Below are positions 23,105-53,165 of a stretch of DNA of 64,000 bases, piece by piece (position 1 is the first letter of the stretch; every line of letters starts with the position of its first letter). The translations under genes and the position numbers were made by a program. Source of the stretch: Planococcus sp. MSAK28401 (lineage in GTDB: Bacteria > Bacillota > Bacilli > Bacillales_A > Planococcaceae); contig NZ_JAAMTH010000001.1 of assembly GCF_018283455.1 (NCBI RefSeq), positions 467,001 through 531,000 of the forward strand, in the 5' to 3' direction. The notes beneath the pieces are model-generated. The model had not been told where the DNA came from and ran no database searches. It was given only the letters and a program-made list of their open reading frames with translations.

Positions 23105-23261
23105 CATTTATTTGCTCAACTTTCGCTGTGCTCAAGCCTCGGACATTCGTTTGCTCCCACATCTGCGAGGCAGATGCGTCGCAAATAAATGAACTCAGCT
23201 GCCCTCTATAACATTTATTTGCTCGACTTTCGCTGTGCTCAAGCCTCGCAAACGAATGTCC
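23105..23261. repeat. Intergenic composite repeat (direct plus inverted arms)
   Basis: A 37-base direct repeat lies at 23105-23141 and 23212-23248 with one mismatch. Each copy is followed by one arm of a perfect 14-base inverted repeat, GGACATTCGTTTGC (23141-23154) and GCAAACGAATGTCC (23248-23261). Between them CATCTGC-GAG-GCAGATG (23160-23176) forms a short hairpin. The reverse complement of 23151-23196 is about 90 percent identical to 51243-51287, so this is a dispersed element. No gene is seen in the 351-base gap from 22999 to 23349. Confidence 0.8.
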
Positions 23262-49489: not shown

Positions 49490-50356
49490 ATGAAACCCAC
49501 AAAAAAGAAAAACGACTTCGACAAGAAATTTTATATAAAATGGATGGTGATCGCAATGACAGCAATCTGGGCAGCAATTGCCGCAGTGTGGCTCTCTATG
49601 CATAATTGGGATACAGAAGAAAGCATGAAAGCATTAGCACAGGCCTTTACCGAACAACCGGCAGAAACCGAACAGCAAGCCCCTGCAGAGGAGGAACCGG
49701 CAGTGAAAGAAGAGCCAGCAGCGACAGAAGAAACTGAACAGCCTGAAACACAACCGGAAGAGCAGCCGAAAGAAGAAACGCCTGCACCAGCACCGAAAGA
49801 CGCCACCGTCTATCCTGAGATTGATCAATTGCCATCAGAACCGACCATCGTGAACGGCATCCTGCTGGCGAATAAACAGCATCCGCTGCCTGCAAGTTAT
49901 GCACCTGGCGAAAACGCGGAGGCCCGCGCGGCATTTGACTCGATGGCACAAGCAGCCGCCAAAGATGGCTTGCAATTAGTCGCCTTCAGCACATACCGCG
50001 GATTTGACCGTCAAAAACAATTGTACGAAGGTTATGTCGCCAAAGACGGCCAGGAAGCAGCCGACCGCTACAGTGCACGCCCTGGCTACTCCGAACACCA
50101 GACAGGACTCGCCTTTGATATCGGTGAAGCCGGCCAGGAACAGCACTGGGCATCTGCTTCCTTCGGCGATACGGCAGGAGGCAAATGGGTAAAGGAAAAC
50201 GCCCATAATTACGGGTTCATCCTGCGCTACCCGCAAGGAAAAGAACAAATCACCGGCTATATGCATGAATCCTGGCATTTCCGCTATGTCGGAAAAGAAG
50301 CCGCCACCGCAATCTACAACCAGAACATCACCTTGGAAGAATATTTGGGGATTTAA
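49490..50356 (+). CDS. D-alanyl-D-alanine carboxypeptidase, VanY/M15B family
   Basis: Membrane-anchored zinc peptidase of 288 residues. A signal anchor (about 17-36), then a 70-residue Glu/Pro/Ala-rich linker spanning the wall, then the M15B catalytic domain from about residue 115. Zinc ligands and catalytic residues are in SEHQTGLAFD (His203, Asp210) and ESWHFRYVG (Glu260, His263). Trims the D-Ala-D-Ala end of peptidoglycan stem peptides; no vancomycin resistance genes are near. The ribosome site AGGAAAG is rather far from the ATG. Confidence 0.92.
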   Translation: MKPTKKKNDFDKKFYIKWMVIAMTAIWAAIAAVWLSMHNWDTEESMKALAQAFTEQPAETEQQAPAEEEPAVKEEPAATEETEQPETQPEEQPKEETPAPAPKDATVYPEIDQLPSEPTIVNGILLANKQHPLPASYAPGENAEARAAFDSMAQAAAKDGLQLVAFSTYRGFDRQKQLYEGYVAKDGQEAADRYSARPGYSEHQTGLAFDIGEAGQEQHWASASFGDTAGGKWVKENAHNYGFILRYPQGKEQITGYMHESWHFRYVGKEAATAIYNQNITLEEYLGI

Positions 50357-50480
50357 GTGACAAGCGAATAAATGGAACCGGCCGTTTTCCTGAAAAGGGG
50401 GAGCGGCCGGTTTTTTGTTTTAGAGAAAGTCTAGTTAGACATGAAAGCGAAATTTGGTATTCATTGCAGGTTTCATCGCG

Positions 50481-51128
50481 AGATAGCCGCCTCCCGCTTG
50501 GGGCATGCCTCCCGCAATAAGCCAAGAAGAACACTTGTCTTATTGCTTCGGCTCGCCCGTGTACGCGGTTCGGCTTTAAGATTTCATTGGATATTGCGTG
50601 CGAAGACGTTTCACAGTTAGTTAATTTCATCCACTGGCGGGGATGCTTAGTTAGACTTGATAGTGAGGTGAAACGTTCGTTGAGTATTTTATCGTGAGAT
50701 AGCCGCCTCCCGCTTTGGGCATGCCTCCCGCAATAAGCCAAGAAGAACACTTGTCTTATTGCTTCGGCTCGCCCGTGTGCGCGGTTCGGCTTTAAGATTT
50801 CATTGGATATTGCGTGCGAAGACGTTTCACAGTTAGTTAATTTCATCCACTGGCGGGGATGCTTAGTTAGACTTGATAGTGAGGTGAAACGTTCGTTGAG
50901 TATTTTATCGTGAGATAGTCGCCTCCCGCTTTGGGCATGCCTCCCACCATAAGCCAAGAAGGGCACTTGTCTTATGGCTCCGGCTCGCCCGTGTGCGCGT
51001 GTCGGCTTTAAGATTTCATTGGATATTGAGTGCGAAGACGTGTCACTGTTAGTTGTTTTCATCGGCTGGTGGGGACGCTTAGCTGGACTTGATAATTGCA
51101 GAGAAGTTACATTCGCTGTTCCATTTGA
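50481..51128. repeat. Three tandem 216-bp repeats with conserved hairpin
   Basis: Unit starts at 50481, 50697 and 50913. Copies 1 and 2 differ at only about two positions; copy 3 is clearly diverged, and 50432-50480 resembles the last 49 bases of a unit. Each unit holds a hairpin: GCAATAAG-C-CAAG, 7-base loop, CTTG-T-CTTATTGC. In copy 3 an A-T pair has become C-G (CCATAAG/CTTATGG) while the loop also changed, so pairing is preserved. The period is a multiple of three and leaves an open frame of 244 codons on the minus strand, but there is no supporting start or family. No gene seen from 50357 to 51567. Confidence 0.85.
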
Positions 51129-51242
51129 GTTTACGAAGATGGTTAAAGCTTTTCGCGCTTACTTCAATATGTGATGAATTTCATTGCCTCTCTAAAACTA
51201 GAGATGAAGCGGAAAGGGGCGAATGGATGGCGAGGGGAAGCC

Positions 51243-51325
51243 GAGTCCATTCATTTGCGACGCATCTGCATGCAGATGTGGGAGCAACGGTTTTCCTGCG
51301 ATGCTCGAACACAGAGAAACTAGGT
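51243..51325. repeat. Copy of the dispersed intergenic repeat
   Basis: 51243-51287 is about 90 percent identical to the reverse complement of 23151-23196, including the hairpin CATCTGC/GCAGATG. Similarity continues more weakly to about 51325, where GAACACAGAGAAAC corresponds to GAGCACAGCGAAAG of the other copy. Confidence 0.7.
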
Positions 51326-51445
51326 GCCCTGGACTGAGCGCTAGCGAGGGAAGCGGCTGAAGCCGGCCCCCGGGCAGCCGAAAACGCGACGTCCTGTCGC
51401 ATCGGCTGCATGACCCGCATCCTGCGGGCCTAAAGCGTCCCCTTG
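51325..51445. other. GC-rich structured intergenic element
   Basis: GCAGCCGA (51374-51381) pairs with TCGGCTGC (51402-51409), enclosing GCGAC/GTCGC; CCCGCA-TCC-TGCGGG follows at 51414-51428. Base composition is richer in G+C than the flanks. No reading frame supported. Function unknown. Confidence 0.5.
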
Positions 51446-51525
51446 CAGCGTAATCTCCACCACCATAAATTTCCACTATCATTTTCTGATTTAAAAACCC
51501 TACCACATCTACAACTCACCAAACG

Positions 51526-51567: not shown

Positions 51568-53025
51568 TTATAGAATCGGTGCCAACAGGCGAGCGATGGA
51601 TTCCTTCGATTTGATCATGCGGGTTCTCGCCATGTACATCTCATAAGTCAGCTCTGACGACAATTCCGTATCTTGCCTGAACATATCCGCGAGCTCCATC
51701 GAAACCTTCTCATCGTAAATGAATGCATTCACTTCAAAATTCAACTTGAAGCTGCGGACATCGATATTCGCTGTGCCGACCGTCGACGCTTCATCATCAA
51801 TAACGATCATTTTCGTATGCAGGAAGCCGTTATCGTAGATGAACACCCGGGCTCCGGCCCGCAACATCTGGCCGGCGTACGAATACGTCGCCCAATAGAC
51901 AAACGGGTGGTCCGGTTTGTTCGGGATCATGATACGCACATCGATTCCGGACAGCGCCGCAATCCTGAGGGCGTCATAGAAACTCGCATCCGGAATGAAA
52001 TACGGCGTCTGGATGTAAATATATTCGCGCGCTAAGTGGATCAGCTTTAAATAGCCGTCCTTGATCTGTTCCCATTCCTCGTCCGGGCCGCTGGAGACAA
52101 TCTGCATCGAAGTCGAGCCCTCTTCGGGTTGTGGAGGGAAGTACGCTTCATCATATTCAATATCGTGCCGCGCAGAAGCCTGGTTCCAGTCGAGGATAAA
52201 GCGCGTCTGGAGCGGATAAAGGGCATTTCCTTCCAGCCGGAGATGCGTATCGCGCCAATAGCCGAAGCGGCGGTTGAGCCCGAGATATTCCTCCCCGACG
52301 TTAAAGCCGCCGATATAGCCGACCTTTCCGTCAATGACCACGATCTTCCGGTGGTTCCGGTAGTTCAGCCGGGGGTTGATGATCGGCATAATGGAAGGGA
52401 AGAAGGTTTCCACTTCGCCACCGGCTGCTGAAAATTCCTTGAAATGGCGCTTGCTCAAACTGCGAGAGCCCATGTCATCATAAAGAAGGCGTACTTTTAC
52501 GCCTTCTTTCGCCTTGGCGAGCAAAGCGTCCATAATGCGATTGCCGAGCTGGTCCAGCCGGAAGATATAATATTGGATGTGGATATGATCCTGTGCTTGT
52601 TCGATATCGCGAATGAGGGCATCGAATTTTTCCCGGCCGTCGTTGAAGATTTTCACGTGATTGTTTTGGGTCAACAACGCGCCGTTATTGCGCAAATGCA
52701 GGTAAATCAAATTGCTGTAATCCTTTGTGCTGACATCCTGAAAAGGGAAAGTGCCGTCATGGATTTCATTCATTTGATGGGCGATTAGGCTTTCGATTCC
52801 GATCCGTTTACGGCCTTCTTCCCATTTAAAAAGCTTTTTTTGACGAAGCTTGCGGCCGAGCAACAGGTAGATGAAGAATCCGGCAATCGGAATGAAGAAG
52901 AGCACCAATAGCCATGCCCAAGTGGAGGAAGCATCCCGGCGTTCCAGAAACACCAGCGCCGCTGCAAGGAAAATGTTCAAGATGAAGATTGCAGCAGTCA
53001 ACACACTGATAATGGTGACGGTCAT
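51568..53025 (-). CDS. cls: Cardiolipin synthase
   Basis: Membrane phospholipase-D-type synthase of 485 residues that joins two phosphatidylglycerols to cardiolipin. Two N-terminal helices (about 1-60) precede two HKD sites: NHRKIVVIDGKVGYIGGFN (His225) and LHTKMIVIDDEASTVGTAN (His403). YIQTPYFIPD is the conserved link. The start chosen is the second ATG (53025), 7 bases after AAAGGAG; the first ATG has no spacing. Monocistronic. Confidence 0.94.
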   Translation of the reverse strand: MTVTIISVLTAAIFILNIFLAAALVFLERRDASSTWAWLLVLFFIPIAGFFIYLLLGRKLRQKKLFKWEEGRKRIGIESLIAHQMNEIHDGTFPFQDVSTKDYSNLIYLHLRNNGALLTQNNHVKIFNDGREKFDALIRDIEQAQDHIHIQYYIFRLDQLGNRIMDALLAKAKEGVKVRLLYDDMGSRSLSKRHFKEFSAAGGEVETFFPSIMPIINPRLNYRNHRKIVVIDGKVGYIGGFNVGEEYLGLNRRFGYWRDTHLRLEGNALYPLQTRFILDWNQASARHDIEYDEAYFPPQPEEGSTSMQIVSSGPDEEWEQIKDGYLKLIHLAREYIYIQTPYFIPDASFYDALRIAALSGIDVRIMIPNKPDHPFVYWATYSYAGQMLRAGARVFIYDNGFLHTKMIVIDDEASTVGTANIDVRSFKLNFEVNAFIYDEKVSMELADMFRQDTELSSELTYEMYMARTRMIKSKESIARLLAPIL

Positions 53026-53165
53026 GGCCATTCTCCTTTGTGGATAATTGTTTATTGCCTCTAGTATAGACTAGTTGTGTAATTGAAAGAAAGAGAGAGC
53101 TAAGTGGATGTTATTTCCTTATTATAACTTTTATTGTAATTAACTGCCTCTCAACTTTATTGACT

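What the first reader, a model, noticed from the sequence alone, without database searches (positions are those of the whole stretch)
50432..51128. Tandem 216-bp units with a hairpin kept by compensatory change
Copies 1 and 2 are nearly identical, so the array expanded recently; copy 3 is older, yet an A-T pair in its stem became C-G on both sides, which implies selection on the fold. Each unit has further CG-rich blocks. The array lies in a gene-free 1.2 kb between vanY and cls. It could be a structured RNA, a protein-binding array or a duplicating mobile repeat. The period is a multiple of three, giving a false long ORF.
Basis: partly seen in the sequence, partly recalled or inferred. Interest (0 to 1): 0.7.

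Follow-up and report, generated by a model that had tools for sequence, protein, structure and literature searches.

The report
Modular hairpin repeat family in Planococcus
The three tandem 216-bp units are one of about 32 arrays, in this one bacterium, of an apparently uncatalogued hairpin-bearing repeat that occurs in every Planococcus genome searched and looks like a modular, mobile-type (BOX/MITE-like) element rather than a gene.

Summary
In detail: three 216-bp units lie between vanY and cls, copies 1 and 2 are 96% identical, and copy 3 carries a compensatory stem change. But the array is not alone. The same genome holds 65 BLAST matches in about 32 intergenic arrays; all 46 Planococcus genomes searched with a hairpin model have it, as do many Sporosarcina/Filibacter. 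Over 106 diverse copies 96% of stem cells pair and 15 of 24 pairs show double-sided changes (0/500 shuffles reach this), so the fold is selected. At the vanY-cls site 14 related species carry 1-3 units, while most distant species have only a ~50-100 bp terminator spacer: an insertion with changing copy number. The element is composite: leader, n hairpin units, and a tail of swappable hairpins, here including an Rfam Bacillaceae-1 RNA. Arrays are almost never between divergent genes and usually lie outside intrinsic terminators; here no sigma-70-like promoter was found. Best reading: a new BOX-like, non-autonomous modular repeat whose hairpin is kept by selection on propagation or exchange. A transcribed RNA or a protein-binding DNA array is not excluded. 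The long ORF is spurious. No mobilising enzyme was found and no transcript data were available.

The parts
49490..50356 (+). vanY (D-alanyl-D-alanine carboxypeptidase family), flanking gene
   Evidence: Pfam PF02557, 4.5e-43
50374..50414 (+). Intrinsic terminator of vanY, bounding the element on the leader side
   Evidence: terminator-like scan, 18-pair stem; -29 kcal/mol
50430..50483 (+). Leader: part of the inter-hairpin spacer before the first hairpin; exact start approximate
   Evidence: shared with other arrays' leaders; D2 repeat at 50432
50484..50578 (+). Hairpin core of unit 1
   Evidence: fold z -3.3 (+) and -4.5 (-); covariation over 106 copies
50579..50699 (+). Spacer of unit 1
   Evidence: the repeat finder D1; alignment
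50700..50794 (+). Hairpin core of unit 2
   Evidence: alignment of units; unit 96% identical to unit 1
50795..50915 (+). Spacer of unit 2
   Evidence: alignment of units
50916..51010 (+). Hairpin core of unit 3, with the A-T to C-G compensatory pair
51011..51094 (+). Spacer of unit 3, joining the tail
   Evidence: TRF array end; alignment
51095..51199 (+). Tail linker
   Evidence: shared between arrays and orthologous sites
51200..51219 (+). Tail foot, 5' side (AGAGATGAAGCGGAAAGGGG)
   Evidence: conserved across 14 species, 91% mean identity
51220..51326 (+). Exchangeable tail module (GAATGGATGGCGAGGGG...)
   Evidence: replaced by other modules in sister species; dispersed elsewhere in the genome; folds z -2.8
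51327..51372 (+). Second exchangeable tail module (CCCTGGACTGAGCGCTAGCGAGGG...)
51373..51428 (+). Bacillaceae-1 RNA motif within the tail
   Evidence: RF01690, 44.7 bits against cut-off 35
51433..51457 (+). Tail foot, 3' side (AAGCGTCCCCTTGCAGCGTAATCTC), partly complementary to the 5' foot
   Evidence: conserved across species, 93% mean identity
51530..51557 (-). Intrinsic terminator of cls, bounding the element on the tail side
   Evidence: terminator-like scan, 12-pair stem
51568..53031 (-). cls-like PLD-family gene, flanking gene
   Evidence: Pfam PF13091, PF13396
50328..51062 (-). Spurious 244-aa ORF through the array
   Evidence: most other arrays have periods not divisible by three; no Pfam family over its cut-off

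Best explanation
The array is one copy of a modular, non-autonomous interspersed repeat of Planococcus: a leader, one to several units each with a conserved ~95-nt hairpin, and a tail of exchangeable hairpin modules. It entered the gap between the vanY and cls terminators in an ancestor of one Planococcus subclade (shown: filled and empty sites). Unit number then changed, most likely by unequal recombination or replication slippage (change shown, mechanism inferred), and tail and unit segments were swapped with other copies (swapping shown, mechanism inferred). The hairpin is the recognised part; it stays foldable because only foldable copies are propagated or serve as donors, through a trans-acting factor not yet identified (inferred). 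Arrays persist where they disturb neither promoters nor transcripts: next to terminated gene ends, almost never between divergent genes (position shown, reason inferred).
For: 65 matches and about 32 arrays in one genome; present across the genus. Covariation: 15 of 24 pairs with double-sided changes, 0/500 shuffles. Same site filled in 14 species with 1-3 units, empty in most distant species. Different tail modules between the same feet at the same site, and modules inserted into hairpin units; tail pieces at 57 places. Intact unit dispensable at this site: G021 lost 18 nt of one arm, G104 is split by an insert. Terminators between gene and element in 19/21 tail-side and 9/14 head-side cases; 1 of 32 arrays between divergent genes. 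The same hairpin sits in a MITE-like inverted-repeat frame in Filibacter.
Against: No transposase or target duplication is linked to the Planococcus form; exact ends are not defined. The one RAYT of the genome has its own, unrelated repeats. The hairpin core at the vanY-cls site is more conserved (88.5%) than leader, linker, post-tail spacer (72-73%) and cls four-fold sites (65%), which could mean function in place, although conversion among copies would do the same. The orientation bias among tandem genes (17:4) is not explained by pure tolerance.
Confidence: 0.6

Rival explanations
1. A structured RNA: the hairpins act as RNA, probably from the element's minus strand, made by read-through past the tail-side gene's terminator or from an unrecognised promoter, for example as a transcript stabiliser, RNase target or sponge.
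For: Covariation. Minus strand folds better (mean over copies); A.C mismatches exceed G.T on the plus strand, 53 to 26, p 0.003. In 27 of 32 arrays the tail-side gene reads towards the element, and in 17 of 21 tandem pairs the minus strand runs along the genes. An Rfam RNA motif lies in the tail. Hairpin conserved above its surroundings at one site.
Against: Terminators on both sides and no sigma-70-like promoter in the region; terminators in 19/21 tail-side cases genome-wide. The strand asymmetry shrinks to p 0.024 once the mutation pattern of the spacers is allowed for. Broken units are tolerated. No single gene context.
Confidence: 0.22
2. A DNA array bound by a protein (as gyrase or IHF bind BIMEs in enterobacteria), shaping supercoiling or nucleoid structure next to gene ends.
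For: Tandem spaced palindromes near gene ends; 10 of 32 arrays between convergent genes; conserved loop and spacer blocks.
Against: Pairs co-vary rather than keep a fixed duplex sequence, which duplex binding does not require; most arrays are not between convergent genes; copy number at a site drifts between 1 and 3.
Confidence: 0.12
3. A coding repeat: the 244-aa minus-strand ORF is a repetitive protein.
For: Open frame through three units.
Against: Most other arrays have periods not divisible by three; conservation follows stems; no Pfam family over its cut-off.
Confidence: 0.01

Closest known systems
BOX elements of Streptococcus pneumoniae (PMC3049150)
   Same: Modular leader-repeat-tail build with a variable number of middle modules, RNA-foldable, dispersed, favouring gene 3' ends, able to make chance ORFs on expansion.
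   Different: Middle unit here is about 216-247 bp with a ~95-nt hairpin; tail modules are swapped; no terminal inverted repeats were recognised in the Planococcus form. Sequence relation was not tested.
BrickBuilt MITE of Porphyromonas gingivalis (PMC4596501)
   Same: Tandem repeat flanked by leader and tail, intergenic, about 20-30 places per genome.
   Different: Its repeat is 23 bp and it has inverted-repeat ends; here the unit is ten times longer with a covarying hairpin.
bcr1 of the Bacillus cereus group (listed in PMC2267715)
   Same: Group-specific, intergenic, structured interspersed repeat of Bacilli.
   Different: Not listed there as a tandem leader-tail system; sequence relation was not tested.
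REP/BIME with RAYT
   Same: Dispersed palindromes near gene ends; the genome has one RAYT.
   Different: That RAYT is flanked by its own repeats, unrelated to this hairpin.
Bacillaceae-1 RNA (RF01690, PMC2864571)
   Same: Present above the gathering score as one module of the tail.
   Different: Not part of the repeated unit; some sister species have other modules in its place.

Membership tests
Small structured interspersed repeat (BOX/BIME/bcr kind) | Many dispersed intergenic copies in one genome and its relatives | tested here: met
   65 places, about 32 arrays; all 46 genus genomes
Small structured interspersed repeat (BOX/BIME/bcr kind) | Conserved secondary structure | tested here: met
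Small structured interspersed repeat (BOX/BIME/bcr kind) | Insertion at sites empty in relatives | tested here: met
   vanY-cls filled in 14 species, empty in most distant ones
BOX element (S. pneumoniae) | boxA/boxB/boxC sequence homology | not tested
   only the architecture was compared
MITE | Terminal inverted repeats | tested here: inconclusive
   none recognised by eye in the Planococcus form; clear in the Filibacter frame
MITE | Target-site duplication | tested here: inconclusive
   empty sites too diverged to define the junction; TA suggested in Filibacter
RAYT-mobilised REP | Repeat flanks the RAYT gene | tested here: not met
   L159 has no core match and carries other repeats
Bacillaceae-1 RNA (for the 216-bp unit) | Covariance-model match of the unit | tested here: not met
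   only the tail at 51373-51428 matches
Structured RNA gene | Transcription | not testable with these tools
   no expression data; no promoter-like site found

The most novel reading that the evidence does not exclude
A genus-wide building-block system in which interchangeable covarying hairpins are assembled on shared stems in terminator-bounded gaps, and exchanged or mobilised as folded single strands by an unknown enzyme, with the hairpin also serving an RNA or single-strand function at each site.
Probability: 0.15. Interest if true: 0.8.

Novelty: new variant of a known kind. Interest (0 to 1): 0.5.

Why it matters
It adds a large structured repeat family, apparently uncatalogued (no Rfam family, no paper found), to a poorly explained class. 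The same site in different species has different unit counts and swapped hairpin modules, so the old question whether such repeats are selfish or functional can be tested directly. It also suggests that an Rfam motif of unknown role (Bacillaceae-1) can travel as a module of such repeats.

Tried and rejected
Coding repeat: rejected, because most other arrays have periods not divisible by three. RAYT-mobilised REP: the only Y1 transposase match in the genome has its own repeats. Integron attC-like array: considered because of the tandem hairpins; no attC-type end motifs were seen by eye, and no integrase search was made. Insertion at a fixed distance from a terminator (as class C group II introns do): the tail-to-terminator distance differs, about 70 nt here and about 40 nt in L035 (read). 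Orientation set by replication: 24:8 overall, but 5:5 between convergent genes, so the bias seems to follow genes. Phage or plasmid carriage: no phage record matched; the one plasmid record (NZ_CP025126, 7 kb) carries ordinary chromosomal-type genes and may be a misfiled chromosomal piece. Three viral-contig pattern hits were not followed; the pattern is degenerate enough for chance hits. Literature: no paper found on such repeats in Planococcus or Sporosarcina. The plain strand-asymmetry test lost much of its force once a similar mutation bias was found in the spacers.

Full report
OBSERVATION. The window holds three head-to-tail units of 216 bp (50471-51094; copies at 50460, 50676 and 50892, the later two 96% and 82% identical to the first). 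The region between vanY and a PLD-type, cardiolipin-synthase-like gene holds no credible gene. The 244-aa minus-strand ORF is an accident of the period: most other arrays have periods not divisible by three.

NOT A LONE ARRAY. The unit matches 65 places in the same genome. A profile search finds full or partial units in 32 arrays of one to several copies, in two main forms with periods near 216 and near 245. A direct BLAST match occurs in all 23 other same-genus genomes of the first sample and in none of 16 genomes of other families. A covariance model of the hairpin finds it in all 46 genomes of the genus and in 40 of 204 other genomes of the family, mostly of one genus. Named hits of a hairpin-tip pattern are almost all Planococcus/Planomicrobium, Sporosarcina and Filibacter. 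Rfam has no family that matches the unit.

THE FOLD. On 106 diverse copies 95.9% of stem cells are standard pairs, 15 of 24 pairs have changes on both sides, and 188 cells show such changes, against about 48 in shuffles (0 of 500 shuffles reach the observed value on any measure) and at most 18 when the partner is slid. RNAalifold alone finds 18 pairs, 13 with double changes. On a tree, parsimony counts 62 changes from one Watson-Crick pair to another. So a hairpin of about 95 nt is selected. A.C mismatches on the plus strand exceed G.T (53 to 26, p 0.003), which would favour the minus strand as the folded one; but the spacers show a related mutation bias, and the corrected test gives only p 0.024. 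The strand is therefore suggested, not shown.

ANATOMY. Comparing arrays by eye gives a leader that starts roughly 55-75 nt before the first hairpin, n hairpin-spacer units, and a tail. In the window the tail runs from about 51095 to 51457: a linker, a foot AGAGATGAAGCGGAAAGGGG, inner hairpin modules, a Bacillaceae-1 RNA motif (51373-51428, 44.7 bits), and a closing foot AAGCGTCCCCTTGCAGCGTAATCTC. Pieces of the tail occur at 57 places in the genome. Of 21 Bacillaceae-1 matches in the genome, 8 lie within about 1 kb of an array on its tail side.

HISTORY AT THIS SITE. The cls gene was found in all 46 genus genomes, and vanY next to it in 27 of the 30 loci fetched, the other three being cut by a contig end. 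Fourteen related species carry one to three units there; most of the more distant species have a spacer of about 50-100 bp that usually holds little more than a terminator hairpin, and a few hold other repeats. G004, a close relative, has two units, which supports the view that units 1 and 2 here arose by recent duplication. At the same site sister species carry different tail modules between the same feet, and several have a tail-type module inserted into a hairpin unit. Segments are therefore exchanged among dispersed copies, and the compensatory difference of unit 3 need not have arisen in place. The hairpin core is well conserved here (88.5% mean pairwise identity, against 72% leader, 72% tail linker, 73% post-tail spacer and 65% cls four-fold sites), by constraint or by conversion. 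Yet G021's single unit has lost 18 nt of one arm and G104's is split by an insert, so an intact unit at this site is dispensable.

POSITION. Of 32 arrays 10 lie between convergent genes, 21 between tandem genes and 1 between divergent genes; in 27 the gene next to the tail ends towards the element (p 0.0001). In tandem pairs 17 of 21 have the element's minus strand along the genes (p 0.007), while between convergent genes orientation to replication is 5:5. Twenty arrays from other species, many probably orthologous, include none between divergent genes. A terminator-like hairpin separates gene from element in 19 of 21 tail-side and 9 of 14 head-side cases. In the window both sides have one, and no sigma-70-like promoter was found. 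The gene calls behind these counts are simple codon-usage calls of my own.

RELATIVES IN OTHER FRAMES. In Filibacter tadaridae the same hairpin lies in a short frame with inverted ends (TATATATGTTGACATAAAGAATCC ... GTTCAACATATATA), with 36 frame-end matches; several frames have lost the hairpin by central deletions of different size. This looks like a MITE with a large palindrome, possibly with a TA target. It supports mobility of the hairpin within the bacterial family, as a lead and not as proof.

JUDGEMENT. Shown: a genus-wide dispersed family, a selected fold, insertion with empty sites, changing copy number, module exchange, and placement next to terminated gene ends. Inferred: propagation of the folded hairpin by a trans-acting factor. 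It works like a BOX element (PMC3049150) or a leader-repeat-tail MITE such as BrickBuilt (PMC4596501), but sequence relation to them was not tested, no target duplication was found in Planococcus, and no mobilising enzyme is known; the resident RAYT is probably not it. A transcribed minus-strand RNA and a protein-binding DNA array remain open; the former is made less likely by the terminators and the lack of a recognisable promoter. No transcript data were available.

Noticed in passing
L159 (own genome C1:2504566-2504901 and flanks): A RAYT-like Y1 transposase gene flanked on both sides by its own palindromic repeat AATTGTGTGGTGCACAGGGACA; a separate REP system.
   Followed up: partly
L336-L355 (Filibacter tadaridae, G093): MITE-like frames with inverted ends TATATATGTTGACATAAAGAATCC and nested central deletions of the hairpin, as if the palindrome had been excised in different lengths.
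   Followed up: partly
L153, L154, L156 (vanY-cls gap of distant Planococcus): Other, unrelated hairpin-rich repeats occupy the same gap in species without the array.
   Followed up: no
window 23121-23204 (-): A dispersed copy of the tail module of 51235-51319 elsewhere in the window (C1:490121-490204).
   Followed up: no
L058 3676-4513 and L056 2933-4029: Arrays in which a tail-type module has been inserted into the arm of the unit hairpin and then amplified with the unit.
   Followed up: no
L038 (own genome near C1:462000): A long run of G in the spacer of one unit (L038_1), possibly a slippage-prone tract.
   Followed up: no
L170 (NZ_CP025126, Planococcus sp. MB-3u-03): A 7-kb record filed as a plasmid carries an array and chromosomal-type genes; probably a misfiled chromosomal piece.
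   Followed up: no
L333-L335 (IMG/VR contigs): Three viral contigs match the degenerate hairpin-tip pattern; perhaps chance.
   Followed up: no
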